Origin: Chromera velia
Taxonomy: Eukaryota; Sar; Chromeraceae
NCBI GenBank assembly: GCA_018398765.1
Contig: JAHBMJ010000201.1
Coordinates: 41,937 to 81,936, forward strand
Direction of reading: 5' to 3'
Length of the DNA: 40,000 nucleotides
The translations under genes were made by a program, and so were the position numbers. Under the pieces are notes generated by a model, which worked only from the letters and a program-made list of their open reading frames with translations, made no database searches and was not told the DNA's origin. Below, piece after piece: positions 13 through 31,606 of the stretch (position 1 is the stretch's first letter; each line of letters opens with the position of its first letter).

Positions 13-830
13 CCAAAGTTCGCTCTCCATGGCCTTCCACGGCGTTCCCTTTCTGGCCAATTCTCTCTGCCGTCTCGCCACTGATGTGTGGAGAAGCCTC
101 TCGTCCCCCAGGGACTGCGGGAGAAAGTCTTGGTCACCCTTCTTCGATCGTGCCATTGACCAGGGTCTCAACTGCAAGCAGACAAGAAAATGAACGCCAA
201 TGTGCAGACTGACTGACACACATGCCCACGAACCTGGGGACATGTGCACATGCCTGCAGGATCCGAAAATATACCCGTATGCTCATGAGCGATCTACAAA
301 GGTTCGCATACGTGCACACACATAGACCTGCACAAAGACAGATACAATCATTCTCTAAGATGCGTGCAGTCCCTTCTAATTCTTCTTTATATGCCAAGCC
401 GCTTGAGCGTTCACATTTCTGCCCCTGTCAAGCTTACAGTGCCGGAAAGAAGGTCATCGATCATGTGGGTGTACAGGTCGGCTTTCATCTTGGGTGTAGG
501 CGCATCGTGCTGGATCCATACCATGTGCTGCACAGGCACGAGCAAAGATGGTGACACAAAGCCGGATGCATGATGAGAGACCTTCAATGTAGATGAAGGC
601 GGAGTCTCGTGTGCAGTGCGATCGCAGTGTAATGCACGTCCACACATCCGGTGCATGTACATACAAACGCTTGAGCGTGATGTACGGATATGCAAACATG
701 TAGCGTCACTTGTTTCATTGCAAGGATCACTGACCATCACACGCGTGTCGCAAGAGCAAACGCATAGAGAAAGCCTACAAAAAGTCTCAGTAAGCCGTCG
801 GTGTGCTTCTATACAGATGTGCAGACTGAC

Positions 831-879
<49 letters not shown>

Positions 880-3800
880 CCTGGAAGACGATATCAGAAG
901 CAGCAATCGACGCTGCAATCTGAATCGGCATAATTCCTCGAGCGTTCACTTCGTAGCTCCTCAAGTTGTCCGATAAGTTCACCAGCTCCTTCAGCATGGA
1001 AAGGCCCTTCTGCAGTCCAGAACAGGAAAGCCAATGTCTAGGATACATTGTCAAACTCGTGGACAAGGGGCGTGCACACACACGCTTGAGCTCGATGAGT
1101 TGACAAAAGCTCACTCATACTCTCACAAACTTCTCCAGCACTCATTCCTGTGCCCACACTTATTCGCTTTCTGATTAGGCAAAAGAGCTTCACTTCCATT
1201 CCATTGCAAATTAAGCCCTGCAAAATCACATGTCAAGCGAACAGACCCAGAGAGATACTAAAAAGATTATAATTCATCAGACCCAGACCCAGATAAATAG
1301 AGACAGTGAAGGCACGCAGCTGACAGACAGACATTCTGGAGCACGGGTGCTTTGAATGCGATGATATGCAGCGGAGTCGACTTCTCCAGAAGGTCAACGC
1401 AGGAGGAGCCCTCCAAAGTCAGTCCCACAACCAAACGGCAGTCGTCGCAATTCTGCTCCCATTGACGATTCCCGGCGCTCCACAGCCCCGGAATTGCCTC
1501 TCTTTGGTTGTGGGCGATTGCAAACATGAGCAAGTTGGCCTGCAGATTCGCATCGACGGAGCTATTGTTCCCTGTTCACAACGTGAACTTCAAGAGGAAA
1601 CCAGCAGACAAATGCATTGTCTAGTCTTTGGGATGTCATTGAAACGACTTCTCTTCTCTTACTTCAGAACTTATGATCTTTGTCAGTCAGACACACTGGC
1701 GCGTAGAAGAAGAGCGACCATGTCATCAAGGACAAAAATGCGACACAAAGAAGGAAAAGGAGAAGCTGTCGAGCGCTGAAAAAAGAAACTCAAAGATCCA
1801 GACAACCCTGTTGCTGGACGTCTGTGTGACAGTTGTTTTTCTTCCCGCTCAGGCGTAAAGTTGATCGAGCTTTGACTGACATCATCCAGAGTCTTGTAGG
1901 AATTGATATCGATTTTGAAGACCTGAATGAGGGCTGTGACGGCATCGAGAGCCCTCTCGACCTTGTATGACTCTGCCAGTTGGGCTTCTCTGTTGTGAAA
2001 GATCATGTTCGGATTGGGGGCCTCTTGCCAGCCCTCCAGAGGACACGCAAATCTGGATCTGGGGTCCGTTGTTGCTGTCCATTTTCTTTCAAGAGCCAGT
2101 GCATAGAAGCCCGGTCGAACCCCGTGGTTGTCTGCAGGGCAGAGGGAGTCGACGATGTCTTCCTCGGAGATAGACCAGTGAGCTGTCCCTCGTTGTCCCC
2201 GTTTCTCGTCCCCCCTACATTCCCATTCTCCGTCACTCACCCCTCCTCCTCCTCCTCTCACTGGCCATACGCCACTCTCTCCTCTCTCCTCATTTTCTCC
2301 ACACGGGAAATCGTGTCTTCTTTCCCCCTTTCTTTCATGTCTCCTGGAGGCCTCAAACAACGAGAAGATCGTGCTGTAGGCCCCTGCTGCCTGCACACAA
2401 TCAAGATCCAAGCAGATCTTCTTGCTGCCTGTGGGGCACAAGACGAAAGTTTCGACCCCGCGTAATAGAGCTCGCGTCCGTTGGGCTGGTCTCTCACAGG
2501 GGGTGGCTTCTTGAAGGCAAAGCAATTGAAAGAACAAAGAAAGAAAAGCGATATCGCAGGGGAGGGGAAAGCAGAGACTTGAGAAGAGCGGTTGAAGAGA
2601 GAGAAAGAAAAACAGTTTGAACGCTCAAAGGAAGAGACGAACACAAAAACAAAAAGCTGCATATCAGTCAATTAACCAACGCACGTTTGCTCGAGAGCTC
2701 AGGTCGACGTAGTGAAGTGCCGACCGCCCGTGGTGGTCTCTCTGTGTAATGTCTGCCCCAAAGTCGACAAGCATCTTCAATGCCTTCACATTATGTCTGC
2801 ATGCAGCAGATGGATCGATCAATCGAGATGAACCGACAATGAAAATCACTGTCAGGACAGGAGCAGGAGAATCGGCTTTGAAGGATCGACCAGATGACTT
2901 TTCATTCCCCAAGTGCACATTCTACTGACAACGAAGACGAGGACAGTAGAAAGCGAAACAGGCACACAATGGATGCCGGGTCTCGCGCAGTTGCGTTGTC
3001 TGTCGAATATTGGCATAAGGAATCCTTCGCAAATCCCAACAAATTAAGAGCAGGCCGCCGAATTACTTCACAGCCGCTTGTGCGGAAAAAGCAATTTTCG
3101 TCACGACTAGCGGTGAGTCGATCAGCCTCTGCCCGCCCTCTCCTGACGTACCTGTATGCAGCTATATGGAAGGGGCTTCCAAAGCCGCAGTCGCACACAC
3201 TGAACAGGCCACGGTATTTGGTGCCGTATCCGGCTTCCATCGGGACTCTCTCTGCGTGCAAAATGAAGGGAACCTCACTGGGAGGCACCTGGGAGGCGAA
3301 TTCGTCCAGCGAGAGCTGACAAACCTGCATGGATGCATGAGCACACGGATACATGCATGCATGGGCTCAGTCAGCCTGTTCAGGTGCAACAAGGGTTGTC
3401 TGAGGGATCTACAAGGCAGAAATCTGTCTTGGGTTTCGGTATTTCTTTCACGATGAAATCGAGCGATCCACAACTTTTTTCCATCGTAGCAGAAACATGC
3501 ACGCAGGTCGAGTTGCGGACTCTCTGGATCCAGAGCGCACATGCAGGTTTTTCTGTGTCAGGGTCATATAGACGGATGGGTCTGGGCCCATAAAGAAAGC
3601 GACATTAATGTCATTTGGACTCTTCAACCTCCCAAAAGGAAGACAAAATGAGGTTCCTCTCTCGGGAGGGATACACCGGTTACTGACTGCATGACTGACA
3701 TCTGCATTAGAGAATTTCAAAAGCCGGCGATCATCGTTGTCTGACAGATGAGCAACGTTGATGCCCTCAAGACTTCCCTTTACGACCTTCAGGCCTCCCT

Positions 3801-6611
3801 CAGTTGACTCATGGGGGCCCCGTGACCGCACAATGCCCCTTCTCCCCCTTCCTCCCCTGAGGCTATTCCCCCTTCCCGCCCCGACCCCGACGCTTCTTCC
3901 TGCCGCCTCCAGCGCGAGACCCTGCGAGAGAGCTGAAACCTCCAGCACCGCTCTGAGCACATCGGCACTTCCGAACGCGGCTCTCTTGCTGCAATCAACA
4001 TCCGTTCATTTCGTGAGTCAGCTCAGAGGATCCTTACTTCATTCCAACTAAACGCAGATATGCACGTCCCTGTTGTGTGGAATGCGGATCCCCTGCATGG
4101 AAGAATGTATGCAAGGGACGGAAACTCCTGAAAGCCAAATTTTCTCTCTTGCATCTCAACTAGCTTACCCACTACCTTCCTCTCCTCATAACCGACTATT
4201 ATGAGACACTTGACAATGACTCTACACGTGCCTCTCCAGGATGATCACCCTTTACCCCATGCATAACTGACATCGATGTACACAGAGATCCAGACTGGTA
4301 CTTCCTCCATTCGAGAGTCTTTTGATCTGCAGACACACTCGATGAGCAGAAAAAAAGAGACAGAGAGACTGAGAACGACAGGCAGCATAGGGCGATTTGC
4401 GGACAGCTTGTCTTTTCTGAAAGGTCTCGACCGAATTCCTGATCGTGAAAAAACTTAAACGGCTTTTGTTCTTCCATGAGCGGATGCATCGTATGATCGT
4501 TCCGCGAGATTTTGTCCAAGAAAATGATACTTACTTGCGTGAAAGTTCCGAATGACCCGTGCCGCCCCCTTGATTCCGAGATGCTCAGGACCTTGTAGCT
4601 CTATTGCACAGTCGAGAAGACTAGGTTCAGTCACGTAGGCGACAGTTGCGTTCTTTGCAAGTCCCCGAGTAAGGGGCCATTCTGGAGCGTAGAGATAAGG
4701 AGAGGTACCGTTGGGGGTCCAAAAGGCCCCTTCCATGTCCTCCTCTCTCAACTCAGCATCTGGCTCCCAATCGCGAAAGAAATCGGCAACACTGTGGGCC
4801 CTCAGTAAGGCATCTATTCGGACCTCCAAATCCCTCTGGCGTCTCTTCACAGCCTCCTGCGGCTCAGCAAGAATTGTCCCATTGAAAAACGCCTCCACTT
4901 CTGGCGGTCTCTGTTCCTTTATCCCTTCCCAGACATTCAATCCCCCTTTTCCCTCCCCGTCTCCTTCTTCTGAGGACCCAAAGATATTTCCTCGAGGGAA
5001 CCTCCACTCGTATATTTCCTGGTCCTCCTCTGTGGACCTGAAGGAGCCTTTGAGGGTCCCTAGATCTTCACGGGCCCACAGAAGATTCACCGGAGACGCA
5101 GAGGCAGAAGGGACAACGGGGGTAGGACAGAGTGCAGAGCGGAAGATGCCCTGTGTTGCCAGTTCGGGCATCGTGCCGTTCCTTTGGAGTCTTTGCTCCT
5201 GTTCCCACCGAGAGGCGAGCTTATGGACCAACGGAAGAGGTCCAAATTTAGCGGCGAGTCCGAGCTTTCCGGGAAGACCGAAGGGATGCTGCCATTCATT
5301 TTCGAGGGCCTCGAAGAATACAGGGGCGGCATAGGACTGTCTGGCGATGGCCAAAGAGACCAAATCCTCCAGACCGTATGTGAACCTGTCGAAACGGCCA
5401 CCGAGAATGTGGTACAGCTGGTGCTTCAGATCCGCTCTCCTCTCCTGCTTCGTTGTGACGGCATTTTTCACCTCCTCCACCAAGGTGAGAAGATCTGAGG
5501 GGTTTGGGGGCCGTCTGAGGAGTGCGAAGGGGTCGCACCTTGCCTGTGTGGGTAGTGCTACCTCGTGGTTCAGGCATCCGATAGATGCAATCGCCAGCGC
5601 CCAGTGGTCGCTCGCGAACCTGGAAATGAAGAAAGGCATTTGCATGGAGATGCGTGTCTTTCTTTTGGTTGTGATCGAGTCAGTGTAAAAAAAGAGTGAT
5701 CAGAAAACGTGGTTGAAAACCAAAAGGAGAAGTCAAATTTAGAGAAGAGAAGAAAGCCTAAAAACAAGGACGGCGGATCGGTTTCAAAGAAAGGCCCAGA
5801 ACCCGTATGTATTGTATTCATGTAGTCCTCCACTCAGGCAGCAACACAAAAAGAGAGCATAGATGAAACCAAGGCAAGAAGAAAGAAGCAAGAAGACGGG
5901 AGAATGAATGAGCAGACGGGGGGGCGAAACGAGATCGATAAGTGATGAGAGAAATTCCTCCTCACCTCATTTGGTCCGCCTTCTTCAACTCTGCTTGCTT
6001 CTGTTTCAGCATTCGTTCGTTCCGTCTGTGCACCCCCTCCCACCGAGCTTTCATCACAGACAGCTTCTTTTTCGACACACTTTTTTTCATTTTTTCTCGC
6101 TCCTTGAGGCCCTTCTTGGCTCGTTTTAGTGCGCGCTCGGCTGCTTTGATTCGCCGCTTCAGCGCCTCCTTGCCATGTTTCCGGATGACTTGGAGAAAGT
6201 CCCCGAAGAACTTCACGTCCCCATGCAGTGCTGCTAAGCTTAGAGGGTCAAGAAATGGCACGTAGACTTCTTTGTCAATGCGGTCGCCGCTCAATTTGAG
6301 TTCCTCCAGACCTGCAGTTGGGACTCGAAGTTGTTGGATCACCTCAGTCTCAATTCTCTGCATTCATTCAACACGTACAGAGAGCACAAGAGAAGGAATC
6401 ACAAGGAACAAGAGAGTGCGCGTTTCTTGTGTAATTTGAAAAGATACTTCTCATACCTGAAAGATTCTTTATTGTCTGCATAGCTTCAGACAGACAAAAC
6501 AAAAGACGAAAGACCAAAAACTCCCACGACACGCATGCCAGCGCAGGAGAGGAGTCTGGTTCTCCGAGTGAGTGAGTGAGAGTGTCTTCAAAAGCAAACC
6601 TGATATACACA

Positions 6612-6667
<56 letters not shown>

Positions 6668-6746: not shown

Positions 6747-8597
6747 GAGAGAGAGGTAAAAAGCAGAAGACCAACAAGGAGAAAGAGACAAAAAGAGAGA
6801 CAGACAGACAGACAGACGGACAGACAGAGAGACAGAGAGACAGACAGACAGACCGACAGACAGACAGTAGAATGACAGACCCTTGTTTGAAAGAGAGTCT
6901 GGTCCAATGAAATTTGGATGTCTCCGAAGGTGAAGTCCACCTTGCGCAACTTTGGTTCATTCTGCAGCAGTCAGTGTTTCGACACACACATGAACACAGC
7001 CACACATGCACGCACAGAAACACGCACAGTCTGTCTCAGAGCACAGAGACACAAAGAAAGGGCGCTGAACGACGACAAAAAGAAATCAAATTCCTGCAGT
7101 GATTCGGAAATCTGAGTGACACAAACTGAAAGAGGAGGACGGGAGACCACGTCCCTACAAGAAACTCGCTCAATCCTGTTGGAGTTTAGCCGCGGTGCCA
7201 CAAGATCCAAAAGTCAGTCTCTTCTACTGCCACAAGCGCTTCTCTTGCTTCTTTTTGGCGCTTTTTGACTTTTCATAAATACAGAGACGGACAGGAGTGA
7301 AACAAGCAGTCTGTCTGTCTGACTGACTGACTGACTGACTGGTTGACTGACCGACCGACCGACTGACTGACCGACCAATCGACCGACTGACCGACCGACC
7401 GACCGACCGACTGACTGACTGACTGGCTGACTGGCTGACCGACCGACTGACTGACTGACTGACCGACCAACTGACTGACCGACCGACCGACCGACTGACT
7501 GACTGACTGACTAACACGCAAAGGGAAGGAAGGAAGGAAGGAAAGAAAGAAAGAAGGCAGGAAGGCATGACTGCATTCCCGACCAACCGACCGACCAAAA
7601 ATGCAGGCCATTGCTCCAGCTGAGATTCCACGAGGTTCAAATCTTTTGAGACGACTCCAATAATCAACTGATCAAAAGCTTCGGACTTTCCGTTCGCAGG
7701 AGCGTCTGTTGGGGGGAGGAAGATCTTGAGGCAACCTCCAAACTCAGAACGAATCATGCCCTCACCACATCCATCGAATCCCTGTCCTCTGTCCTCCCCC
7801 AAGCCCTCTTCTTTCGAGGATCCTTTCCCTTCTTCTTCTTCTTCTTCTTCTTCTTCTTCTTCTTCTTCTCCTCCTTCTTCTTCTTTTTCCACGTCGTCCC
7901 CATTCTTTTTCTCATTCTCGTTGGTGTCATTTTCATCCGGTGAAGAAAAGGAGGCAGACGCTAAGAATCCGCTTTCCTCGTCCTTCTCTTCTCCTACACC
8001 CCTATCCGCCCTTCCAACAGTCTTTTCAGCCTCACTTGGGACCTCCTCTCTCCATGCTGTATTTCTCTCCACCCCCTCAACGTCTTCATTGTCATTCGGT
8101 GGGGGGACAGAGAGGACGCTCGCCTGGTTTTCGTCATTCGAAATCCCAACAGACAATCTCTCCACCGCCCCCTCCTTCTGCTGGTCCCTCGCTTCGGAAG
8201 ACTCCGTCGCACCTTCCAGCAGACCCCAAGCCCCCCTGTCGTCACCATTCCATGCAGGTTGCTGCGCTCTTCCATGCGAATTCAAAGTCTTGGACGGGCC
8301 TCCACCTTCCACAAACTGCATCATGTCGGACGGAATGCCGTCAATGACCACCACTCGGGCACCGTCTGTTGTCTCTTCCAATACATATCTCCGGTCCTGG
8401 GCGTGAGAAGTGAAGGTAGAGGGAAGTGGAAGCGAGAATTGAAGTGAATGGGCGCGCCTGAGCCGGGACCCGACCCCAGCGCCGTTCCGGGGCAACGCCC
8501 CCCTCGTAGGAGAAGTAAATGAAAAGTACAGAAGTAGTGCAAAGGTGCTACGAAAGCCAAACGCGATGAAAGTGCCATGCGCCTTCCAGCATGTCAT
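13..8597 (-). CDS. Large ankyrin-repeat protein with hydrophobic N-terminus (partial, runs off left edge)
   Basis: Multi-exon gene read right to left; function beyond ankyrin scaffolding is unknown. Phase-consistent exons: 8597-7596, 6961-6881, 6475-6457, 6311-5966, 5619-4535, 4326-4272, 3988-3684, 3552-3452, 3324-3152, 2796-2681, 2509-1881, 1539-1333, 1217-1131, 1009-881, 527-438, 171-13, then a GTGGGT donor at the edge; about 1,530 codons so far. Residues ~10-28 are hydrophobic (signal peptide or anchor), followed by an acidic run (poly-Glu, 7829-7869). Ankyrin signatures: SPFHIAAYRHNVKALKMLVD spliced across 3152/2796, GADITQRDHHGRSALHY, STPLHIIAFKAPVLQ at 1539-1333 and PLSLAALHGDVKFFG at 6311-5966, the last followed by a Lys/Arg-rich helix. 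LRR-like LEELKLSGD precedes it. The 2509-1881 exon may hide a short intron around 2258-2180. The 19-nt exon 6475-6457 and the link from the first exon are the weakest joints; two genes cannot be excluded. Confidence 0.82.
835..880 (-). repeat. Donor-adjacent (CT)n(GT)n microsatellite in ankyrin gene intron
   Basis: On the sense strand the intron after exon 1009-881 starts GTCTCTCTCT and runs without a break into a GT tract of about 13 units. The splice donor itself is the first repeat unit. Confidence 0.9.
6607..6880 (-). repeat. Intron-filling (GTCT)n(CT)n(GT)n simple repeats
   Basis: The intron between exons 6961-6881 and 6475-6457 starts GTCTGTC on the sense strand and is almost all GTCT, CT and finally GT repeats up to about 6607. 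Both strands are open in several frames here only because of the repeats. Confidence 0.9.
7310..7595 (-). repeat. GTCG/GTCA tetranucleotide repeats after a GTCGGT donor
   Basis: The sense strand of the first ankyrin-gene intron opens GTCGGTCGGTTGGTCGG, passes a CTTC/TTCC block (7523-7560) and continues as a mixed GTCA/GTCG tract to 7310. Confidence 0.88.
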
Positions 8598-12088: not shown

Positions 12089-13869
12089 AGGGAGACAGCA
12101 GGTGGGGCGGACGCACAGCCCATGGAAGAGTTGAGAAAGGCACATGGAGGCTTGGGAGACACCCAAATAAACAAACGCGCACGGTCTTTCTTTCGTCAAC
12201 AAACTTACTTACAATTCATCGACTGCCCGTCTGTAACCCTCAGCCCTTCGAACGAGCTCCGCAGCTCCATTCTCCCTCGAGGCTGTTTCTGGAGCCTTGG
12301 ACTCTCCTTGAGAGGCCGTCTCCAAAGCCTTCAAACTGCATTCATTGAATTCGGATTGGATTCGATGGTCATCTCTTTCATTCATATTTAGAAAACACAG
12401 CAGAAGATTTCTGTTCAACAGTCTATCAGGATGTTTGGACCCACGCTGAGAGGCCATGCAATTATTTCGTCTTCAGACTTCAATTTGCACGCGCCCACGC
12501 ATAGAGAGAGTAAAAGCATGGAGCAATGAAAGAAGGCAATAAACGAGGAAAGAAACTTAACTAAACGAAATACGGCCTTTTGTGTTCGGGCAATATTCTT
12601 TTAAGGAGGAACAGAATTACTTAATTCAGGTGCCACGTCACCTTTCTGCACCCTTTCTTCTTCTCTCTCCTTCCATCTTTCTGTCTGGCCTTCTCTCTAT
12701 GCAAGAACGCATACGCACAGCTCGCACGGTGAATATCCGACTTGGGTTTGGGTTGCCTGCAAAACTGTGTGCAATTCGCCAGCCGTGAGAGGAGAGAGGC
12801 CTCTTCTCTCTCATGCAGCTGCAGTCTCTTGACTGACTGACTGACTGACTGACTGACTGACTGACTGACAGTCGGTCCACGGCCCTCTCCTTCCTGAGCA
12901 GGTTGTCCTCGTACACAGTCAGAAGCTCCACGTAGACCTTCCGATCCTTGTCTGCAGGGTCGTCGAAGGAGAAGGAACCTGAGGATGAGGAGAACGACGC
13001 TGGGGCAGACACCGTTGTGCACGGCTGTACAAATTGAGTTGGTTGCTTTGGTTTTTCCTGTGCCACCTGAGTGAACGCAGTTGGTGGGGTCCCGGGGGTT
13101 TTCTCCAGGATTTGGATTGGCGGTCCTGTTGGTTTGCGTTCTTTTGGCTTTGCTGTGGGGTTAGAGAGAGGGGACAGAGAGACTGTGGAGGGTTTCTTCA
13201 GACCGACAGGAGGTTGGGCTGTCTTGGCGAGGAATGATGACGGCGAGTTCAGTCTCCTGTTTTTGATTCTGGTCGCTTCTTGTGGCAGCGAGAGGAGGGG
13301 CGAGTCCGTTGTCTGCGTACAGGAGGAGAGATCAAAAACGCGCGCCGAGAAAGGTGTCATTGTACTGCTGGCGGATTGAACACGAAGGACCGTAGGTATG
13401 TATTGATATAGGAGAGGCAACGACAGAGAATTGAGCGAGCGAGGAACGAGGGGTGCATGGTAAAGACAGGTAGGTAGGGAGGGAGGGGGGAAGTTCGTGC
13501 AGACGCACTCCGAGAGAGGGCGGACAAAGAGAATGAAGAAAGGAACACACAGAGCGTGATGGGTATAGATGGGTGAGGATCGATAGGCGACAAGAGTGAT
13601 CATTTGGGGCAGTCCTTGGCAGAAAAGGGGAAACTTTGTCTATGTGCGGAGGCACACAAAAAGAGAACTAAATCTTTGATTGCGACATGCACTCCCAGGT
13701 TTTTTCTGCTGACATCAAGAATCATCTCCACCTCTACGTCTGCAGCCACTGAGGGCAGCCCGACCCCTTTGCCCGTTGGTGTTTCAGCCAGGGAAGTCAT
13801 CAGAAGGAAGGGAAGCCACAGAAGTTTCCTCCAGCTCCCCTGACTCCTTTGTAGGTGCTTCAATGACAT
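10336..13869 (-). CDS. Secreted proline-rich, charged coiled-coil protein, unknown function
   Basis: I do not recognise a family. Eight phase-compatible exons: 13869-13693, 13312-12870, 12756-12652, 12335-12213, 11866-11776, 11214-11108, 10790-10635, 10363-10336 (stop TAG at 10338-10336), giving about 409 residues. The N-terminus has basic residues then KLLWLPFLLMTSLA, a good signal peptide, so the product is probably secreted or routed through the ER. Exon 2 is rich in Pro, Ser, Thr and Lys (residues ~60-170), then turns charged and helical (DRKVYVELLTVYEDNLLRKE). Exons 4-7 encode helical, coiled-coil-like sequence (AAELVRRAEGYRRAVDEL; VALWTELQALKTAAAE) and an Arg/Glu-rich tail. It is divergent from the dehydrogenase gene at 14705, with 835 bp between the starts. 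Exon 1's donor and the 28-nt last exon are the least certain parts. Confidence 0.72.
11231..11324. repeat. (ATTC)n microsatellite
   Basis: About 23 near-perfect ATTC units, with a few ATTT variants, within the intron between exons 11866-11776 and 11214-11108 of the coiled-coil gene, 17 bp from the acceptor. Confidence 0.92.
12043..12094. repeat. (AG)n / GGGA microsatellite
   Basis: AG dinucleotide tract turning into GGGA units, inside the 12212-11867 intron of the coiled-coil gene; on the sense strand it is a pyrimidine tract. Confidence 0.9.
12831..12869 (-). repeat. (GTCA)n microsatellite starting at the splice donor
   Basis: On the sense strand, exon 13312-12870 is followed immediately by about nine GTCA units. 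The first unit and a half is the donor GTCAGT. Confidence 0.92.
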
Positions 13870-14704: not shown

Positions 14705-17700
14705 ATGAGCTCCAAGATTCGTGTGTCCCTGGAGGAATTGAAGCGGCTGACTCGCGAGAGTTTGCGTGCACTTGGGTCAGCACGGGAGATCGTGCTTGAG
14801 TGGAGACGGGGTGGCATGGAACCTTTCTCCTTCAACAGACTTGCAAGTCGATTTGTAAAGAAAAGAGAAATGGCTGAACTACTCAACGGAGTAAAGATGG
14901 GCATGCGTACTAAGTGTCTTCTTCTCTTGGCTTCTTGTCTGCAGGCATCATCAAGATGACTTGCAACGCATGGTGGAGCTTCTCGTCTTTGCGCAACTGA
15001 GGGGCAACAGCCAAGGAATCGTCAAAATGTCAGACAGAGTGGTGAAGGAGCGGGAACTTATACTAATCTCGTACGATGTCGTCCCGTTCTCTCTTTCGTG
15101 TATGGACGCGTGCCAGTTCTTTCTTTCTGCTGGTCTCTTTCGGCTTCCTTTGCTTCCCTCTTGGCTCCTAGGCAGTCAGGCTGAAGTGGTCAATTATCTC
15201 ATCGCCCTTGTGAGATCCTCGTGCCATTTTCTTTACGCTCTTTTCTCAATCTCTACCGTTCCTCAAAATGAGTGGATGCAGTCCCAGCGGCGGGATGAAC
15301 CCCCAAAAGGACGCAGGGGAGGTGGAGGTAGAGCACGAGACGCCGCTCTCGTGCATGCTCAACGCCAACAGACGGCCGGGAATGTGAGTCAGTGAGTGAG
15401 TGAGTGAGTGAGTGAGTGAGTGATTGAGTGAGTGAGTGAGTGAGTGAGTGAGTGAGTGAGTGAGTGAGTGAGTGAATGACCGAGCGAGCGAGTGAGTGAG
15501 TGAGTGGGTGGGTGGGTGGGTGAGTGAGTCTGAAGAGGGGATGGAGCACGTCTGTTTCCGATAAATAGATTCCGGCAGGCGAGAAAGAAACAGGGTGATG
15601 AAATCGACAGAGGGGTCATTTGTAGGCGTTGTGGTTCGTCTTCACAAGGAAGCACGTACATGCATTTCTTCTCCCTGTGTTCTCTGTCTGTGTTCAAGTT
15701 GCCTATTTGCACGCCCCGGCAACCACTTTTCTTTCTTTTCATTCTCTTCTCCCTCCTTCCTTCCTGCAGTGCAGGACTCTACAGGGCCACAGAGGAGGCA
15801 TGCATCTACTTTCATACAGAATTCTTTTTCACGCATTATACATACTTTTCCCTCCTTCCTGCAGTGCAGGACTCTACAGGGCCACAGAGGAGGCATGCAT
15901 CTACTTTCATACAGAATTCTTTTTCACGCATTATACATACTTTTCCCTCCTTCCTGCAGTGCCGGACTCTACAGGGCCACAGAGGAGGCCATGTCCCGTG
16001 CGAAGGCGCATGGTCGGTCAGTGAGAAGTAGAGTGCAGTAACGGAGAAAGGAAAGGATGACTGATGGGTTGTGGACTTCAGACATGCGTTGTTCTAAGGA
16101 AACCGGGTGAGTTGGCAGAAGAAAAGAAATGCAGACATTTAGGGGGTCGACAGAGAAATGGGCAACCATATGTAGGATTGGATGGATAGGTGGATCGGTT
16201 CAAGGGGGAGAGAAGGGAAAGCTGCTGCACTTCTGTCGCAAGAGGTCTGGGCGGAGGAGCATTCGTGTTGGTGGTTTTGGGGTCCCGAGCTTCATCCGTC
16301 TTTTGTTTATGTGTGTGCGTGTGTGCAGGTTTTGGATTGGTTAGTTGGTCGGTGTGTTTTCTTGAGAGAGGAATGGACTCTGACTGGAATCTCATCGTTC
16401 TCAAGCGGGCGGGGAAGGGCGGACTAGATGTGGAGGGGAGGGGGGGTGAGGAAGATAGGGGGGGCTCCGGGGGGACATTAAAATCTAAAGCAGTCATCGA
16501 TCAGTGCATAGAGGGGGGGGGAAAGAGGAGAGGGATCCAGTGGATATTTGTTCTTCCATTTTGTCGCATCTTTTGTTCTCGCTTCTTTGTGGTTGGTTTT
16601 TCGTATGTTTCTTTGTCCCTCTCCCAATGTTTGATCTCTTCTTCTCGGTGTGCAGGCAGGGCTCCATGGGGTGTGCACGGGAACGGGTGCGATCGGATTC
16701 TACGCAGAGAAGATGGCAAAGGAGGGACTGGTGGGGTTCGTCTTTACTCAGTCTCCGGAACTGGTGGCGCCGTATGGGTGCTATGAGGTGGGGAGTCGGG
16801 AGGGAGGGGGAAGCTGTGTCAATCTCTGTTTTTGTCTCTCTTTGTCTTTGTGTTTCTTTTTCTTTCTCTGGCTGTCTCTATCTCTGTAGCCATTTCTTCC
16901 ATGCTGCCTCACTTTGGCGCTGCACTCTGTTCTGTATAGCTATGCGCGGCTGCTCTGTTCTGCTCTGACGCACGCAGCCGATCTTCGGGACCAACCCGAT
17001 GGCAGTCGGGATGCCGAGACGCGCCCCTCTGGATCCAATCGTGTTGGACACCGCCATGTCGGCAATCGCCTTCTTTCGGTCAGCCTTCTGCCAACGTGAA
17101 AGAGAGTGCATGAGTGATCAGGTGTGGCTGTACATGTGACTGGAAGCCGATTGGCGCGCGTGTAAGATGGCTCTTCCCGTGCGTGCCTTCTTGGCCCGCG
17201 TTTTATGTCCGATCCTGTCAAAGTCCAACTCGGGGCACGAGGAAAAGCAAAATAGATTTGCCTGACTGACCCTCTGACTGACGAATCACTCATCGAGGAA
17301 TACATTCGAGCGAGTGCATGAGTGAGTGCAGGGTACACGAGGCCAAATGGAGGGGTGAGGCTCTTCCAGAAGGCGCGGCTTTCGATGCGGAGGGAAATGA
17401 GACGACTGCCCCTGAAGGCAAGTGCCCACACAGGAAGGAGACCTGTACATTAATACGTCACTTATTCTTGCTTCACGTGGAATAGAGGAGGCAGTGAAAG
17501 TCAAAAATCAGGGTTGATGATTCATGCCAAGGCTGTGCTCAGCAAACTGCTGCATCGTGACCTTGTGGCATTCTTCATAGACCTTTTTTTCGAATTGGAC
17601 TCAAGTGAAGTTCATTCGTCTTGTCTTGCTTGCATTCTTTGTTTAAAGCAATTACCGAGTGCGTAATGTGTCCGTCCGTCTCTCTCTTCACTGGTGAAAC

Positions 17701-19168
17701 AACTTTCTCTTTGTTCCGGACTATTGATGGATGCTTGAGCTTTCACCTTCATATCATTCGAAACTTCTTGCAGCTGCCTTGAAGGGTGCTTTGAGGGTTT
17801 TTGACAGGCAAGTAGTTTGTTTGCTTCTTCCTTCCTTCCTTCCTTCCTTCCTTCTTTCTTTCTTTCTTTACTTTCTCTTTTGAGTCAGGTCAAAATTTGC
17901 ATTTGGTTTCAGCAGAGTGCGTCGATGTGCGAGACAGGCGCGCGTTGGATTTGGATGTTGTTTGGACCAACAGCCCGATGGATAGACGGTCTTTTCATTC
18001 CGCAAAAAGAGAACTAACTGTTTCAGATGAAGCTCAGCCCATTTGCCTTAAAGACACACACAATCCATTTCGATTCGATCAAAATTCTTGTTCGTCAGAA
18101 GAAATCTCATGTCTGCCTGACACCTCGTTTGTCTGTTCTGTTGGCTGTATGGGCTTCCCTGAGTGCATGCAGGGGCTACAAGGGGAGTCACTTGGCGTTG
18201 ATGGTTGAGGTCCTCGGGGGGGTTCTGGGGGGTGGAGCTGTGAAGGAAAAGAAGGTATTGGGGGACCTGGGAAGGGTGTGGGGTTGGAGTGCGTCGTCAG
18301 ACATTCTCTACCTGTCTTATCCGGCCTTCTTTCTGGCTTGCTGGATGACCTATAGATTCATGCGAGTGCCACCATCAAGCCCCTTGCGTGTCATGAGCAG
18401 GTGTCATCTCTCTTTTGATATGAGACTTGCAACTGACTCGTCGTAGGCACTTAATTATCTTGGTGTCCTCCTACATAAGGATGGCTTCTCTATTTCCCTG
18501 GAGGTGCTCTCCCTCATCCCGCCGGACCATGCGCTGAGTGCAGGCAACCCGAGACTGGGGCAGCACCGTGTTCTGTTTCCGCATCGATTTGCTGGGGAAG
18601 GAGGGGGAATACTATGACAAAGTGGAGGTCAGTCAGGCAGGGGTAGAGGGGGGAGAGCGGTGGACGGTAATTAATTCGGACACAGTAAGCCATGCATGCG
18701 ACGCAACTTGCCCCAGAAAATCAACCGATAGCTGCCTCTGATTTCTGCTCGTGAAGAAGGGAGTTGTCTTTCTTTGATCCGGCCGCACCTTTTTTGAAAG
18801 TCGATACAAATTGAGGGGGACCTATGCCCACGGTTATTTTGCCGTGTGTGACTTGGGCTTGGTGAATCTGCAGGATCTCGTGGAGAGATTGAAGAGCGCA
18901 AAGAGAACGGAGGGCGCGCCTGAGCCTCTGTTGCCTGGGGAGAGGGGCAACAGGTCAGCTCGGAAGCTGCCTCTATTTTTCCCAAACGGTCCCTTCCTAT
19001 AGGCGAGCGACTGCAGAAAGCTGAATGGATCCTTTAGTTTTTCTTGTGCATGAGACATCGGCAAGCCTTAGGTTCAGGCTGAGAATGCCCTCTTCTTTGC
19101 AAACTAACAAGAGTCAAGGTGCCTTGCACTCTAAATGTCTGTCTCTCACTTCTTTGTCATGTGTGTGC

Positions 19169-24573: not shown

Positions 24574-25272
24574 ATGACAGGCTTGGATATCGTGAGAGAG
24601 AAGGCCCCAGCCGCGTGTGTCGTTATTATCCTTTTGCTTGCATCATTTCATGTCGTGCTGGCGAGAAACACAGTCTTCTGTAAGCTCGAGAATGCCTCGA
24701 GTCAATCGGTAGAGTATTCTTCATTTTACTTTTACGCGAAGTACTCTGATGGCGGAACCACCAGAGGTGGGGACCTCGGAGCGACCGGGACGTTGGCCCC
24801 ATGGGCAACGGTTTCAAAGGGCTGGGTCACGGTCAAGGATGGCTTCGGGAGCCAAATGGGGACCTACTCTGCCGCTCTTGATCCCGAATTAGCGGCACAA
24901 ATGCACTTTTCCAAAACAGAGATTCCACAGGCGCTCTGTGGAGCAAAGATAGATGGAGACGTTGTTTGGGGACTCGTCTGGGATCCCAGCATCGGCCCCA
25001 TGTATCTGAAGGAGCACGGGGGGAACGTAGATTTCTCAACAGATCCTTACACAATCACACTGCAGCACAGAGGAGACTTTACATCGTGCTCTGAATACTG
25101 CAGGGCGGAAGGAACTACAGGTGGGACGATCAAGGGGAGGGCGCCTTGGTGTGAGGCAACGTGTGGGGGAGATTGTGGGGGGAAACCGTGCGTACTCGCC
25201 AACAAGTCCTGGTCGGAGTACGGAGACAAGTGCTTGTGGGGGACCCAGGAGAAGATCTGTTGCTGTGATTAG
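24574..25272 (+). CDS. Secreted cysteine-rich protein, unknown function, intronless
   Basis: Single open frame of 232 residues beginning at the ATG of MTGLDIVREK. Residues ~12-31 (ACVVIILLLASFHVVLA) form a strong signal peptide with cleavage likely near LARNTV. The mature part starts with a beta-rich, Trp/Tyr-rich region and contains GLVWDPSIGPMYL near the middle. It ends in a cysteine-dense module (residues ~170-232) with C-x3-C, C-x3-CGGDCGGKPC and a terminal CCC, implying several disulfides and an extracellular or vacuolar location. I do not recognise the family. Codon use and GC are higher than in the AT-rich flanks, supporting a real gene, and a GC-rich island lies 260-410 bp upstream. 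An in-frame upstream ATG at 24496 exists but would bury the signal peptide, so the 24574 start is preferred. No intron signals interrupt it, unlike the spliced genes nearby. Confidence 0.8.
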   Translation: MTGLDIVREKAPAACVVIILLLASFHVVLARNTVFCKLENASSQSVEYSSFYFYAKYSDGGTTRGGDLGATGTLAPWATVSKGWVTVKDGFGSQMGTYSAALDPELAAQMHFSKTEIPQALCGAKIDGDVVWGLVWDPSIGPMYLKEHGGNVDFSTDPYTITLQHRGDFTSCSEYCRAEGTTGGTIKGRAPWCEATCGGDCGGKPCVLANKSWSEYGDKCLWGTQEKICCCD

Positions 25273-27254
25273 GCACAGAGCTTCCGAATCGGACTGCGCC
25301 GTACTTTCCTGTGAGTCTCGTGAAAGATATCCATCGAGAGCACAGTTAGTTACTCTATGAACCTCTCAAACTGACCAGCTAGGTGGCCAGAGATTTGCCG
25401 TCCTTGACCGGCGTCCCGTGACGTCCTTTTTTTTTGTTTTTGAAAAGTACGCCCGAAGTCTCCGCCAGGAGACTAGCCAGGAGAGGACAGAGAGGACAAA
25501 GAGGCCCGGAGATGTTGCCGTACGCTTAGTACGCTACGGTAACCTCGCAGAAGTGGCAATGCAAGCTGCGCATATGTGCGTAATGCTGTCACCGAGCATA
25601 GCCGGACTATCGGCAGGAGCAATTATAAGCGCTGTCAGTTTCAACTTCTAACTCTTTATACCTTAATTAATTCAAGATATGAAAAAAAAAGTTAAAAAAA
25701 AAATCAAAAACTAGATCAACAAATAAAAATTGACTTAATTGACTGATAATTAAGCGTTGCTAGTTTGAGCTCTTAACTGTTCATGCTTTGCAAAAAAAAA
25801 AAAAGATATCAAAAAACAAAAGCACGCAAAAAACTTTTTCTATGGAAAAATTAAATTTTTAATAGATTTAATTTTCTATCAATGATCAATTTTTTAGACC
25901 TGCTACCTCTGGCAACAGATAAACATATAGCTAGAAACATAGCAGGAAGGCTTAGCACGGAACCGATTGAAACCAATTAATTAATCAATCAATATACATT
26001 TTTTTTTTTTTTGTATAGCAATCATCTTAGATAGGATAAGATAGGATAGATTTATCTCAGGCTCAGGCTAGGCTATATAATGATGATGATTTCATTCTCT
26101 GTAAATCATTTTAAAGCGGAGTGATATCAGAAACTAAAAGGTTAATCACGTTTTATTATTACGGTTTTAAATTAAATCATGAATCAATTATTTTAATTAC
26201 GCCCTAATTGCGACACGTCATATACGGGTTTAAACGGTTTAGAGGCCGCTAAGCTTTCCTTCCAGAAAACTGTAAAACAACGTACATCCTGCAGTACGTC
26301 TAAGAACAACAAACCGACTGTACTTTTAAGTCCGACTACCACTAGTACGCCTCCAAGGTGGCAAGTTGGCCGTATGAAGCTCTATGAAGCTCTTCTTCTG
26401 TATCTGCCATGAATATTTGTTTCGTCATGCATCAAGCTGCGCCGTTTGATCTCGACAGAGCAGGACTGCGACGGCCAGGTTCCTTCTCGACGACTCGGAT
26501 CTGTCCCCCCCCCCTTTCGACAAATGTGGAGTGCACGACTGGTCCGACGAGCATGGGACTGCATTCCCTCCTTCATGGCAGCTCACCTCACCGAGCTATG
26601 TGGTAGTCGATACATTGGCCCTACAGTGCGCGGCCGTGGCTGAATTGAATCAGTTGACTGATTGGCTTTTCCGAGTCGGTCTCGAGCAACCTTCAGCGAG
26701 CAATTCGGAAATGAATGTTGATTTTGGGTTTGTGATGCATGGGGCTAAGACATGCTCAGTCAGACGTGGACTGCCACTTCTTTAATTGTATTGCTATGAC
26801 CAATGCCTGTCGTATGTGCGTGTAATGAAGGTGACGTTGGTGCTCTTTCTGTCAACAAAAAATCCAAATACCCAGCCGTGGCCTTGGTGTCATTTGTCCG
26901 GTGGGATGAAGATGTCTTGAACTGGTAATGAGTGGCTCCGGGTTCTTTCCTCTGTTGTGCGTGGAGTCTTGCCGCACTCCTCTCGCCACATTTTGTGAAG
27001 AAGACCGGCGCATCTGCACGCACGATGAAGGAAGGCGAATTGAGAGGGAGGAGAAAATTCGAGGGGGGGGAAGAAACGCTGCATGTTGGATCCCAAAGAA
27101 AATTATTCCGGACCGTTCGGTTGCCTTCTTTGCGCAAAGGTACTGACTGGATGAATCACTCATTTATTTTTTGGCTACATGCCTGCTTGACTGCCTGTCT
27201 GACTCACTGACTCAAGGTTTGAGTTTATGAAACCTCTTCTTCACTTTCCTTCTC
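25273..27254. other. Intergenic region between secreted protein and lipase 3' end
   Basis: 25273-25640 is likely 3' UTR and includes an imperfect hairpin (GTTGCCGTA at 25514 with TACGGTAAC at 25535). 25640-26350 is AT-rich with A and T homopolymers and a short ATG repeat at about 26079. 26350-27254 has balanced composition; frames on both strands up to 125 codons show no recognisable motif, and part is probably lipase 3' UTR. No gene supported. Confidence 0.55.
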
Positions 27255-27554
27255 TTAGTCGATCACATGCAAAAACAGATTTGTGGCTGACTTGAGGTAA
27301 TTTGGAGGCAGGTGTTCGTGGACGTCTATCGAGAATCCGCCCCCTTGCTCGTCCTCTGCCTCGACCACGAAATTGGTCTCGCTGCCGCTTCCCCGTGGGG
27401 AGGACTGTAACCTCTTGAGCGTCTCCGCGTGCTCCTCTGTGAGAGCCTGACTGATCAGGGTGTTCCGAGCCTTCACGGTTCTGTTCGATGTCGCAATCTC
27501 TGAGGCTCTGCACACACACACACACACACACATACATACACACACATACATACA

Positions 27555-27596
<42 letters not shown>

Positions 27597-30500
27597 CAGA
27601 CGTATGGTAGATAAGGTCTCTGACTTCATCTCAACGAAGACGTCAAAGGTGGCACTGCAGGAAGGACACCGTTGATCCCTCAGGTTTCTCGAGGAATGCA
27701 GGCAGAAAGACACACTCTGGCAGAAAAAGGCAGCTAGAGACAGAAAGGCTGAAATGAAGTCAAAAGACGTACAGAGGGGAATCTGTCGCACAGAAACAAC
27801 GAATTGAGCCTACCTCCTAGCTGCGAACATTTCTCTCCGCACCTCCTCCTCCAACAATTCCTCTTCTGTCTCTGCCTTGGAGGGGTCCGTCGGGTCATAG
27901 CAGCACAGACACGTGCCCCCGCTCCCGCAACACCCTTTGTTGGGCTTCACGGCACGTCCGTCCTTTTTTGCCCCGGGCCTCCAAGGGGGCATCACGATTT
28001 CGTCTCCCGTGTCCGTCGGTTCCCTGCGAGGGAGTAGTGAAGACAACAGTGAACAGGCAAAGACAACAGGGCAAATGCTTTTGTAAGTCTGGCTGGGAGT
28101 CTGCGCGATTTCCGTTGCGCGTACTTAAACTCCACCTTGTATTAATATTATAGTTTCGTTTGTCCCTCCCCACCCATGGTTGTCTTGGTACCTCCTTACA
28201 ATTTCCTTCCCTCTCACCTGTCTCCTTTCTCCCTTGGCTCCCACGTACATTCATGCACAAATCTTTGCGTGAGTGTCTGTCTGCCTGCGTTCTTGCCCAA
28301 TTTACTGACTGACTGACTGACTTGACAGAGGAGGTGAGGCTCTCGTCAGGGGACCGGGAGAGGAATTTTCTCGTGGAGACCTCTGCCTGTTCTCCCTCGC
28401 CCTCTGCCTCAGACTCCACAACCCCGTACCTCCAGGCACCCTCCAGGTGGAGAAACCCCTGCACAGATAGAGATAGTTCAGGGAGACAGACAAGATAGCG
28501 TGATTGAGAAAAAAAGAAAAAAAATCTGGGAGCTTGAAAGGACGAAAGCTCTTGAAATTCGAGAGGGACACACGAGCAGACCGACCGACGAACAGACTGA
28601 CTGACTGAAAAGACAGATTCCCTGGCTATCAGGCTCACTGACTGAGTGACAAAAGGGTAGGCACGGCATCTCAGAATACTACATTAGTTGCATTCAGACC
28701 AAGCCACGTTCGACCACTTTCCCTCCCTACGCCCACCCACCTGCATGGATGGAGGGACCATGGTGACCACGTCGAAGTGGTTGACTACTCTGATGATGCG
28801 CAGCCTGTCTCCCCTGTGGTCTGCCAAAGGCTTCTTGTGGAGCGCATCCGCGTCCTTCCGGACAGAGCTCAAAAAGTTGGGCCCGCCCACCTGCAAGAAG
28901 CATTCAATTGATGGCAACAAGAGGCAAAGATGAAGCAGGGAAGCGACAAGGAGGAACGGAGAAACGATTCAGAGTGATCGCGGGTAGACAGCCTGCCTTC
29001 TGGGGGGAACTTCGCTTTTGCCTGAGTGAGATCTAGGAGGATGAACAGAAGGTTTATCAGCAGTTGGTCCTCCTGTGTGTGGAGTTTATTGGAGAAATCG
29101 CTTGTTCTGTGAATAGGAGCGCAGCAGCTTTTGCCTCTTTCCTGTCCCTTTTGTCCGGTCTGTGGGTGAGTCAACCAACAGATTTTGCATGCGCGTAAGA
29201 GAAATATGGACAAAAACAGCAAGAGGCACGCAGAAGCATCCCTAGGGCTCCCAGAAAGCGATTCTGTTGCCGATAGCGGAAGACCTTATGAGCAAAAGAG
29301 TGGCACTGTTTGTTTGTGAGCGAAACGCGGTTCTCAGACAGAAGACAAGAGCTGACCGACTGACCCTCGGAGCCCCCAGAGTGAAGAGCGTGACCCTTGC
29401 GCCGCTTGAGAGAAGGGGTTGGAGAAGTGTCTTCTCCTCTCTGCATCGGGAGAGACGGACAAACAGGAAGAGAGAGCGCGCAAAGGAAAATGGAGGGAGG
29501 GGGGGGTGCGAATTTATGCTAATCGTTACTGTGAAGTGAACCAAGTGGGGACTTCAGACAGTCCTTGTCCGGTCCCAATTTTTCTTCTTGCTTGAGTCTG
29601 CATGGATAAGAAGGACAGAAAACAAAATTTGAATTTTGGGGACAGAAAACAAAAACACGAAGGGCAGGTACGTGACTGCACAGCAACAGGGAGAAGGCCA
29701 GATGCACCGATTTATTGCACAGAGTTGAATGATGCTATCCTAGAATCCACCCGTGCCTTTGTCTTCCTCTTGTGAATTCTCTCCTGGTACTTGAGCGAGG
29801 CATGAATGCACATAGTCCATTGACTGACTTGTGGAGGCAGGAGAGGAAGTAAGCAAGGCACTGGACAGCCAGGGCACCCCCTAAAGAGTGACCACAGAAG
29901 ATGATTTCCCTCAATGCAGCGCGCCGTGAAGGGTCTCGGAGAATGGGGAGGACCTGCAAGAGTGTACGCACGTGTTTTGTTCAACAATTTCAGATGCTGC
30001 TCCTCGGCATTCAGTCACTCTTCTGCTTCCTATTGTGTTGATCCAACGCACAGTTCTGCCAATTTTCGAAGTTTCAACCCTCCCCTCCGTCTCCTCCTAC
30101 ATCTGCGGGACCACAAATTCCTTCGATGATAGTCCAGAATTCTTCTTTTCTGAGCAACACACCCCCTGTGCATGCGGTCTCCTTCCTACCTGTTCCCGGA
30201 TGTGCTTGCGAAGAGGAAGGAAGGCGCTGTAGAAGCCCAAGTGGACCATTGGGGGTCGCACCTGCAGGCAGAAAGAGAAGTGGCCGAATCACACCTGAGA
30301 GGGGGNGGGGGGGGGGGGGGAAGGGCAGGGCCATACATTCGAGAGGCACGAACATATGGGCAAATCCGGTCGAGGAAAGAAGGAAGAGAACTGTGAGGCA
30401 GGACCAGGGCATGCCAGAAGGTCTATGCTTACATAGAACACAGCAAGGGGGAGACGCTCTGCATTCGTGCAGCTTTGTGTTTCTTCTCTTTCCACTTCTC

Positions 30501-31606
30501 CCCCATTTACTGTCAGTCCATCTTTCTGCACGCTGACACCACATGCACAAGCCGACTTACTGACCGAGTGGTCAGTGCAACAGAGGAACAAAGAGTCGAA
30601 GCACGCCCCGTGTCCGGCATGGTCCAGATCGTCGTGGGGTTCCCATCTGAAGGAAGGAAGGAACGAAGGAAGGAAGGAAGGAAGGAAGGAAGGGAAGGGA
30701 ACGGGAAGAGATATCAGAGGAGAGTCAGGCAGGAGGAGGGGGAGTATTTGTTGAGGGTGAGCCGAAGCAAGAGGCAACGGAGGAAGGATGAGTAATCTGA
30801 AGGCAAACTCGATGGATACAGGGCGAGTCTGCAAGCGGCTTGTCACGAATTTGGTAGAGATACTGGCAGGGAGACGTATAAAGAGTCAGAGGGAAGGAGT
30901 GGGGAAAATATTGGACTGCTTGCGTGTCCGTATGATTGACTGAAGATTGATGGAAGAACTGACCGTGTACGTGCAGCAATGAGGTCGGTGATCCAATCTT
31001 TGATCGACGTCGTTCCTCTGCACGCGAAGACGAGGATGGATCCGTCATTGGACAGGGCTGCGTATGCCTGAGTGTCCGTGTGGGCCTCGTCAATGAACTT
31101 TTTCAGACTGAACAAGACTGGCTCCTCTCCTTCCTCTTTGCAGATGCCCTTCTCCTCTAGGGTGACCCTGAGGCCCTTCGCACTGTAGACAGAAGGAACC
31201 CCAAAGCCGTCAGGACTCTCCACTTCCTCTCCGGTCTCCGGGTCCACCACCAGGCCGCCCTTCTCACCCACAGTAGAGGCCTCAAAGATCTCGCTGTCTT
31301 CCTCGTTCAGGTACGCTGCATGCATGCATGCATGCATAGGCAGAGAAGTTGCAACAGGTCTGTTAGTGCACGCAAGAGCACTTGTTATGGATATTTCACA
31401 TGGTCTCAGGCACTGCCGTTCGTTCTCTGAGCGGTACATATGCAACAGAAATAGTATGCGTGCATACTCCCCTTGACTCGCATGCGAGCCTCCAACCAAC
31501 CTGCAAGCGTCAATGCAGAAAGAAAAGGCGCCTCCTCACAGACGTCCTTCATCTGCTGTTTGGACGCCCCCGCCTTTAGGCTGATGTTCGTGCGGGAGGC
31601 GGACAT
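27255..31606 (-). CDS. Class 3 lipase (fungal-lipase-like alpha/beta hydrolase)
   Basis: Twelve phase-consistent exons: 31606-31501, 31315-30964, 30646-30565, 30261-30190, 29953-29829, 29597-29530, ~29438-29365, 28890-28741, 28458-28322, 28023-27814, 27654-27598, 27507-27255 (TAA), about 561 residues. Family landmarks appear in order: ILVFACRGTTSIKDWITDL (beta strand and oxyanion region), MVHLGFYSAF, the nucleophile elbow FCGHSLGGALA (Ser), LFTLGAPRVGGPNF across 29365/28890, VVNHFDVVTMVPPS (catalytic Asp) and GFLHLEG (catalytic His). The triad is therefore intact and a triacylglycerol or diacylglycerol lipase activity is expected. After the His come an acidic linker, a Cys cluster (CCGSGGTCLCC, possibly a lipidation site) and a helical C-terminus. 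No signal peptide is visible on this start. A possible extra 5' exon (31907-31767, in phase) would add a different N-terminus. The acceptor before 29438 is uncertain by 2 nt. Confidence 0.92.
27508..27597 (-). repeat. 90-bp intron made entirely of (CT)n and (GT)n
   Basis: The intron between lipase exons 27654-27598 and 27507-27255 starts GTCTGTCTCT or GTCTCT, depending on the exact donor, passes through CT then GT/GTAT repeats, and ends GTGTGCAG. Nothing outside the simple repeats remains. The phase-2 junction on both sides supports the splicing. Confidence 0.88.
28308..28321 (-). repeat. GTCA repeats at the donor of a lipase intron
   Basis: Sense-strand GTCAGTCAGTCAGTAAA directly follows exon 28458-28322, which ends in phase 2 and joins correctly to 28023. 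Confidence 0.85.
30301..30320. other. Poly-G run with an ambiguous base (N at 30306)
   Basis: A run of about 20 G contains the only N in the window, so its length is probably an assembly estimate. It lies in a lipase intron and affects no exon. Confidence 0.9.
30647..30698 (-). repeat. (TTCC)n pyrimidine tract forming an acceptor
   Basis: On the sense strand about ten CCTT units run directly into TTCAG at the lipase exon 30646-30565, so the repeat serves as polypyrimidine tract. Confidence 0.88.
31316..31337 (-). repeat. (GCAT)n tract forming an acceptor
   Basis: Sense-strand CATGCATGCATGCATGCAG ends at the lipase exon 31315-30964; the acceptor GCAG is the last, cut-off repeat unit. Confidence 0.85.

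What the first reader, a model, noticed from the sequence alone, without database searches (positions are those of the whole stretch)
13..31501. Splice donors of form GTNNGTNN that grow into intronic microsatellites
In phase-checked introns of all four spliced genes the donor is repeated with a 4-nt period: GTCAGTCA (12869, 28321, 29364, 29828, 18628, 1880), GTGAGTCAGTGA (15384), GTGGGTGG (12, 28740), GTAAGTAA (12212), GTTGGTTG/A (31500, 2680), GTCGGTCG/A (7595, 16013), GTCTGTCTGTCA (1332). In several cases it continues as tens to hundreds of bases of the same repeat, always in the sense orientation and starting exactly at the exon edge. This suggests replication slippage seeded by the donor (its GT at +1 and G at +5 already have period 4), or selection for repeated donors. 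It could be a route of intron growth, or a decoy or backup 5' splice site array.
Basis: partly seen in the sequence, partly recalled or inferred. Interest (0 to 1): 0.85.

Follow-up and report, generated by a model that had tools for sequence, protein, structure and literature searches.

The report
Splice sites echoed every four bases
In this genome the start of an intron is often copied again at four-base steps into the intron, and the end of the intron shows a similar four-base rhythm, which suggests that small tandem duplications at the splice sites keep reshaping intron ends.

Summary
I placed introns by spliced alignment to seven conserved human proteins, allowing only GT/GC...AG: 92 junctions accepted of 118. 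GT sits at +1, +5, +9, +13, +17 in 100, 75, 37, 18 and 27% of them, against 0-9% out of phase (137 of 243 GTs from +7 to +42 in phase, 62 expected). The NN letters are copied too (20 of 69; 8 expected), flanking exons show no period, and arrays start at the donor (13 of 92; 1.3 expected). Without gene models, 17-nt GTCA arrays begin in the donor phase 1,144 times against 453 in a control phase. The U1 and U6 genes found are canonical, so pairing does not explain it. Simulation comes close on the donor side with 4-nt duplications 3-5 times commoner near intron ends; uniform slippage, or selection for GT, fits worse. The acceptor T rhythm exceeds every model run. Decoy sites and intron growth are not supported. 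A gene-finder set agrees more weakly. Eight open-access library searches showed no earlier report.

The parts
12830..12869 (-). donor at 12869 running into (GTCA)x10
   Evidence: TRF; gene finder donor exact, (below my later score filter)
15384..15529 (+). donor at 15384 running into (GTGA)n, 146 nt, in the Ldh_2 gene
   Evidence: TRF; gene finder; gene family
28304..28321 (-). donor at 28321, GTCAGTCAGTCAGTCAGT, in the lipase gene
   Evidence: below my later score filter; family
29352..29364 (-). donor at 29364, GTCAGTCGGTCAG (lipase gene, just after the GAPR codons)
29821..29828 (-). donor claimed at 29828, GTCAGTCA, after an open frame with GHSLGG; not called by the gene finder
28732..28740 (-). 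donor at 28740, GTGGGTGGG
31492..31500 (-). donor at 31500, GTTGGTTGG
18628..18636 (+). donor at 18628, GTCAGTCAG (Ldh_2 gene)
16013..16025 (+). donor at 16013, GTCGGTCAGTGAG (Ldh_2 gene)
   Evidence: gene finder
12203..12212 (-). donor at 12212, GTAAGTAAGT
   Evidence: below my later score filter
1322..1332 (-). donor at 1332, GTCTGTCTGTC
1873..1880 (-). donor at 1880, GTCAGTCA
7579..7595 (-). donor at 7595, GTCGGTCGGTTGGTCGG
7311..7512 (-). 202-nt GTCA/GTCG array in the same intron, starting 83 nt from the donor
   Evidence: TRF; intron 7595-6962
6786..6880 (-). further donor at 6880, GTCTGTCATTC, with a GTCT array (6786-6867) close behind
2673..2684 (-). donor region; reader puts it at 2680, gene finder at 2684 (GTGCGTTGGTTA)
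1..12 (-). GTGGGTGGGTGG at the window edge; donor status not testable here

Best explanation
The intron ends are shaped by tandem duplication of 4-nt units. The donor holds GT at +1/+2 and G at +5 (99% G), so a duplication of its first four bases leaves it intact, rebuilds a working donor and pushes the older unit inwards, giving GTNN-GTNN-GTNN. At the other end duplication of NTGC in front of the final AG gives NTGC-NTGC-AG. Purifying selection on exons stops the array at the exon edge. Duplications are fixed about 3-5 times more often within some 24 nt of an intron end than inside it. Shown here: the phase-locked pattern at both ends, copying of the NN letters, no echo into the exon, and a genome-wide array-start phase for one motif (GTCA). 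Inferred: that the copying is slippage or tandem duplication, and that the end bias is mutational rather than selective.
For: Homology-placed introns (92): GT at +1,+5,+9,+13,+17,+21 = 1.00.75.37.18.27.14; in-phase 137 of 243 in the 88 of at least 100 nt (count of 88), shift mean 61.9, highest of 5,000 shifts 101; lag-4 identity .474 near donor.354 mid.471 near acceptor, Wilcoxon p 2.4e-8 and 2.3e-6, 82 introns of at least 200 nt. Gene-finder set (93 introns on other loci, but its splice scores and first coding model come from the homology set): 105 of 247 against 63.7.431/.368/.451, p .003 and .0015, 78 introns. NN copied unit 1 to 2: 20 of 69 against 8.3; unit 2 to 3: 10 of 31 against 4.1; gene-finder set 18 of 74 against 10.0 and 7 of 20 against 3.9. 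Exon lag-4 .25-.26 (80 introns). Genome-wide starts of GTCA arrays 1,144 against 453; base before the array G in 60 of the 100 listed. Simulation with a .03-.04, b .3, end factor 3-5: donor lag-4 .45-.50, mid .32-.33, NN .29-.31, donor arrays .13-.15 (real .474.354.29.159).
Against: The conditional rate of NN repetition at GTNNGT is lower at donors than mid-intron. Binned without pairing, the gene-finder set shows no donor excess (.407 at +7..+12.405 at 61-100), only an acceptor one (.478.402). In that set with donor chains removed the phase signal is not significant (52 of 174 against 45.1, p .18), though it stays in the homology set (50 of 110 against 27.4). That set also shows one significant match across the exon edge (exon -1 with intron +4, p .001). 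Uniform slippage with a splice filter is not enough, so an extra end bias has to be assumed. The acceptor T rhythm (.67.60.55; mean of even positions -6..-14 .26) is stronger than in all simulated versions. Paralogous introns look too diverged, by eye, to show a single duplication event. No RNA evidence.
Confidence: 0.6

Rival explanations
1. Selection for repeated donors: extra GTs every 4 nt act as backup or decoy 5' splice sites, or hold U1 near the exon edge.
For: In-phase GT stays raised to about +33 and persists in homology-placed introns without a donor chain (50 of 110 against 27.4); G+9 and T+10 are slightly commoner than NN copying alone predicts (my own estimate). In the gene-finder set array mismatches are somewhat fewer at G,T (7+3) than at NN (7+9).
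Against: Lag-4 identity is no higher at GT columns (.39-.49) than at NN columns (.49-.59) in the homology set, and about equal in the gene-finder set (.34-.46 and .33-.52); array mismatches are not depleted at G,T in the homology set; GT-retention models give a flat GT profile and NN copying of .14-.18. Use of a +5 donor would shift the frame (inference).
Confidence: 0.15
2. A splicing factor or the spliceosome of this lineage reads a 4-nt-periodic signal at both intron ends (GU every four at the 5' end, U every four in place of a continuous pyrimidine tract at the 3' end).
For: T at -9, -13, -17 of .66.59.51 with .21-.45 at the other positions from -6 to -16; simulated duplication explains only part of it.
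Against: NN is copied as well, which such a reader would not need; the donor side is nearly explained without it. The U1 and U6 genes found are canonical.
Confidence: 0.15
3. A merely extended donor consensus with independent columns (for instance GTCAGTCAGT), set by pairing with U1 or U6.
For: +7 C .51 and +8 A .40 resemble +3 C .46 and +4 A .50 in the 80-intron set.
Against: Columns covary within introns (+7/+11 49 of 80 against 25.3); U1 reads ACTTACCTG and U6 GATACAGAGA, which favour GTAAGT, not C at +3 and +7.
Confidence: 0.04
4. Chance or artefact: tetranucleotide microsatellites are common in this genome and happen to lie at some donors.
For: Lag-4 excess also in called intergenic DNA (.326) and mid-intron (.354).
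Against: Phase locking to the splice sites and 13 of 92 array starts against 1.3 expected; array-start phase 1,144 against 453 genome-wide.
Confidence: 0.03

Closest known systems
GYNNGY tandem donors (4-nt-spaced alternative 5' splice sites; PMC4267661, abstract and passages seen)
   Same: Two GTs four bases apart at the exon edge; GT at +5 in 69 of 92 donors here.
   Different: Here the repeat can go on for many units, the NN letters are copied too, and the acceptor side shows it as well; use of the second GT is not shown.
Tetranucleotide microsatellites in introns (PMC6387519, passages seen)
   Same: Period-4 arrays, under-represented in exons, common in non-coding DNA.
   Different: Here they are locked in phase to the splice sites at both intron ends.
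Introner elements of Amoebophrya (PMC7789003, passages seen)
   Same: Alveolate introns with short repeats at the exon-intron edge (that this genome is an alveolate is inferred).
   Different: Those have inverted repeats, direct repeats overlapping the exon edge and sequence families; here no echo crosses the edge in the homology set and introns of different genes are hardly similar.
Intron gain by tandem duplication (AGGT-type; PMC4974935, search listing and start of abstract only)
   Same: Tandem duplication that makes or keeps splice sites.
   Different: That is the origin of a new intron; here 4-nt units appear copied inside existing introns.

Membership tests
GYNNGY tandem donors | second GY four bases after the first | tested here: met
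   GT at +5 in 69 of 92 homology-placed introns
GYNNGY tandem donors | both sites used in splicing | not testable with these tools
   no RNA reads available
microsatellite (tetranucleotide) | tandem copies of a unit, letters copied | tested here: met
   117 arrays in 92 introns against 3-10 in five shuffles; NN copying
microsatellite (tetranucleotide) | copy number varies between alleles or close relatives | tested here: inconclusive
   paralogues L040/L041 differ at the same intron position (GTCAGTCAGCC against GTCAGTCAGTCAGTCAGTCAGAC), but they look too diverged to see the event; no alleles compared
introner elements | sequence families of similar introns | tested here: not met
   among these 92 introns only, arrays masked: 10 short hits at E up to 1e-3, 6 of them between introns of one gene (L031)
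introner elements | direct repeats at the two exon edges (target-site duplication) | tested here: inconclusive
   exon-end = intron-end over 4 nt 11 against 8.1, p .052; over 5 nt 6 against 3.6, p .047; over 6 nt 2 against 0.85, p .20
introner elements | terminal inverted repeats | not tested
   not looked for
extended U1/U6 consensus | letters beyond +6 match an altered U1 or U6 | tested here: not met
   U1 (one hit over cut-off, one below) and U6 (five of six matches) recognition sequences canonical; the U6 pattern fixed CAGAGAAG (up to 2 mismatches), so a strongly altered U6 would have been missed

The most novel reading that the evidence does not exclude
Splice sites of this lineage are self-renewing: duplication of the terminal 4-nt unit regenerates the donor and, at the other end, the acceptor, so that mutation by repeat copying, rather than snRNA pairing alone, sets the splice-site consensus (C at +3, GT every four, T every four before TGCAG), and a 4-nt-periodic signal has replaced the ordinary pyrimidine tract.
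Probability: 0.3. Interest if true: 0.88.

Novelty: new variant of a known kind. Interest (0 to 1): 0.72.

Why it matters
Splice-site consensus is usually read as a product of selection for snRNA and protein binding. Here a process with a fixed step of four appears to be written into intron ends across a genome, at both ends, with canonical U1 and U6. If right, it gives a clear case where repeat mutation shapes a core gene-expression signal, a testable account of how intron ends turn over, and a practical warning for gene prediction and for reading tandem donors in such genomes.

Tried and rejected
Extended consensus by snRNA pairing: rejected, U1 and U6 canonical and columns covary. Introner origin: no intron families among the 92, no clear target-site duplication. 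Intron growth by donor arrays: no correlation with length. Uniform slippage plus splice filter: too weak. A first gene finder without splice signals performed poorly and was replaced (it recovers 77 of the 80 homology introns it was trained on and predicts 10 others). In some searches the simulated acceptor end was blocked by my own index limit; fixed. The statistic 'NN repeated given GTNNGT' is not donor-specific. The built-in control was useless because the reversed motif is its own complement family; the same kind of control serves as a phase control, a use I saw only afterwards. Rows dropped: 26 of 118 aligned junctions with weak or gapped context; 103 of 196 gene-finder introns failing splice-score or length limits; introns under 100 or 200 nt in phase and paired tests (82 of 92 and 78 of 93 kept in the paired test). 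The species name rests on size, low-complexity content and PMC4501334 passages; no direct test. Typed human sequences were not checked against a database.
Full report
Setting. The window is bases 41937-81936 of contig 200 of a 177.8-Mb, 4040-contig genome. It is eukaryotic and intron-rich; [quoted passage not shown] That name is inferred only. One spliced gene in the window is an Ldh_2 malate/lactate dehydrogenase (about 14.7-19.3 kb, +) and one a class-3 lipase (about 27-31.6 kb, -).

Window check. All 15 listed coordinates have GT on the stated strand. A gene finder that scores only exon -3..-1, donor +5/+6 and acceptor -5..-3 has 12 of them exactly and a thirteenth within 4 nt among its 42 window introns; 9 of the 12 pass the later score filter. 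It misses position 12, at the window edge, and 29828, which nevertheless follows an open frame with GHSLGG. The finder was retrained on the sample that includes the window, so this is support, not proof.

Introns placed by homology. Of 118 junctions in 23 loci, 92 (from 21 loci) passed a local-identity filter; 26 were dropped. A second set of 93 introns (of 196 called) comes from the gene finder on the window plus 20 further 10-kb stretches at fixed contig steps. Searches used the first 80 homology introns.

Donor. In the 80-intron set +5 is G in 99%, +9 G 65%, +10 T 59%, +13 G 47%, +14 T 42%. In the 92-intron set GT occupancy is 1.00.75.37.18.27.14.10.14.12 at +1, +5 ... +33 against 0-.09 at out-of-phase positions; 137 of 243 GTs from +7 to +42 are in phase against 61.9 on random shifting, and 105 of 247 against 63.7 in the gene-finder set, p 2e-4 each, the floor of 5,000 shifts. 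Lag-4 identity falls from .53 (+3..+10) to .36 (61-100), other lags staying at .22-.34 apart from 8 and 12. The letters between the GTs are copied within an intron (20 of 69 against 8.3, p 2e-4; gene-finder set 18 of 74 against 10.0, p .003). Flanking exons show lag-4 of .25-.26; in the 92 homology introns no match across the edge is significant, two of four positions being testable at the donor. 17 of 21 loci have at least one donor with GTNNGT and either NN copied or GT at +9.

Acceptor. The other end shows the same: T at -5, -9, -13, -17 of .89.66.59.51 (92 introns), and .74.60.53 at the last three in the gene-finder set, p 2e-4 each. The pairs -6/-10, -7/-11, -10/-14, -11/-15 and -12/-8 covary within introns; -5/-9, -8/-4 and -9/-13 do not beyond their column frequencies. 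The unit reads NTGC in front of AG. This was not in the finding.

Whole genome without gene models. Arrays of 17 nt of the GTCA motif starting with GT occur 1,144 times; the tool's reversed control, which equals the same motif starting with CA, 453 times (p 6e-69). The flank letters excluded are A and T in each, at swapped places. Among the first 100 listed, the base before the array is G in 60 (one third expected with A excluded, p 4e-8), as at exon ends; the base before that G is T in 25 and A in 15, unlike the usual exon end (A 65%), though half of the ten homology donors that begin GTCAGTCAG (dropped junctions included) also have T at that place. The listing comes from the first contigs only, and 5 of the 100 lie in one 1-kb stretch of contig 167.

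Against. Given GTNNGT, NN repetition is lower at donors (18 of 59; 18 of 74) than mid-intron (158 of 330; 336 of 576): interior GTNNGT mostly exists because of arrays. Interior arrays are plentiful (81 in 28,748 positions) and called intergenic DNA has a lag-4 excess too (.326). The gene-finder set is weaker throughout: without pairing its donor zone has no lag-4 excess (.407 at +7..+12.405 at 61-100), array starts at the donor are 6 of 93 against 1.7, and without donor chains its phase signal is not significant; it also has one significant cross-edge match, exon -1 with intron +4, p .001. The sense bias is partly composition.

Mechanism. U1 reads ACTTACCTG in the one hit over the Rfam cut-off and in the next, and U6 reads GATACAGAGA in five of six matches to a pattern that left the first four letters free. 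So C at +3 (42 of 92; GTCAGT 18, GTRAGT 10) and the echo do not come from altered pairing. Array mismatches are not fewer at G and T than at NN in the homology set (12, 31, 10, 26 over 159 unit pairs, where one chain of 59 units weighs heavily); the gene-finder set has 7, 3, 7, 9 over 60. Simulated introns with 4-nt duplication, deletion, substitution and a splice filter fail if the process is uniform (donor-zone lag-4 .35-.37, NN .13-.18) and come close if duplication is 3-5 times commoner within 24 nt of the ends (with a .03-.04.45-.50, NN .29-.31, donor arrays .13-.15; real .474.29.159). A third run at factor 5 with a .05 overshoots (.535.36.183). Retention of in-phase GT with uniform slippage does not fit (NN .14-.18). 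These are rough fits, not estimates. The acceptor T rhythm remains stronger than in any version: the main unexplained item.

Prior work. Searches covered an open-access library for Chromera introns, tandem donors, splice-site repeats and intron gain; listings and some passages were seen. I saw no report of a splice-site-anchored tetranucleotide rhythm; subscription papers and supplements were not searched.

Noticed in passing
L028-L050, homology-placed introns: Acceptors carry a 4-nt rhythm of T (-5, -9, -13, -17) stronger than any duplication model run; T at -6, -8 and -10 lies below the intron background.
   Followed up: partly
L003:1503-1511 and L004:1503-1511 (U1), six U6 matches: Donors favour C at +3 (42 of 92) although U1 and U6 are canonical; GTCAGT (18) outnumbers GTRAGT (10).
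   Followed up: partly
window 15754-15989 (+): A 95-bp tandem repeat, 2.5 copies, carries a 3' splice site with the first part of the following Ldh_2 exon, so three acceptor copies lie in a row.
   Followed up: no
homology-placed introns: 38 of 92 downstream exons begin with GT, so these acceptors read AG|GT, as at proto-splice sites (term recalled).
   Followed up: partly
window 35226-37040 (+): Long open frame with a repeated cysteine/histidine motif (CxHGxxKxxCxxCGG-like, by eye); family not determined.
   Followed up: no
window 16329-16339 (+): Predicted 11-nt microexon in the Ldh_2 gene, followed by a donor GTTAGTTGGTCGGTG.
   Followed up: no
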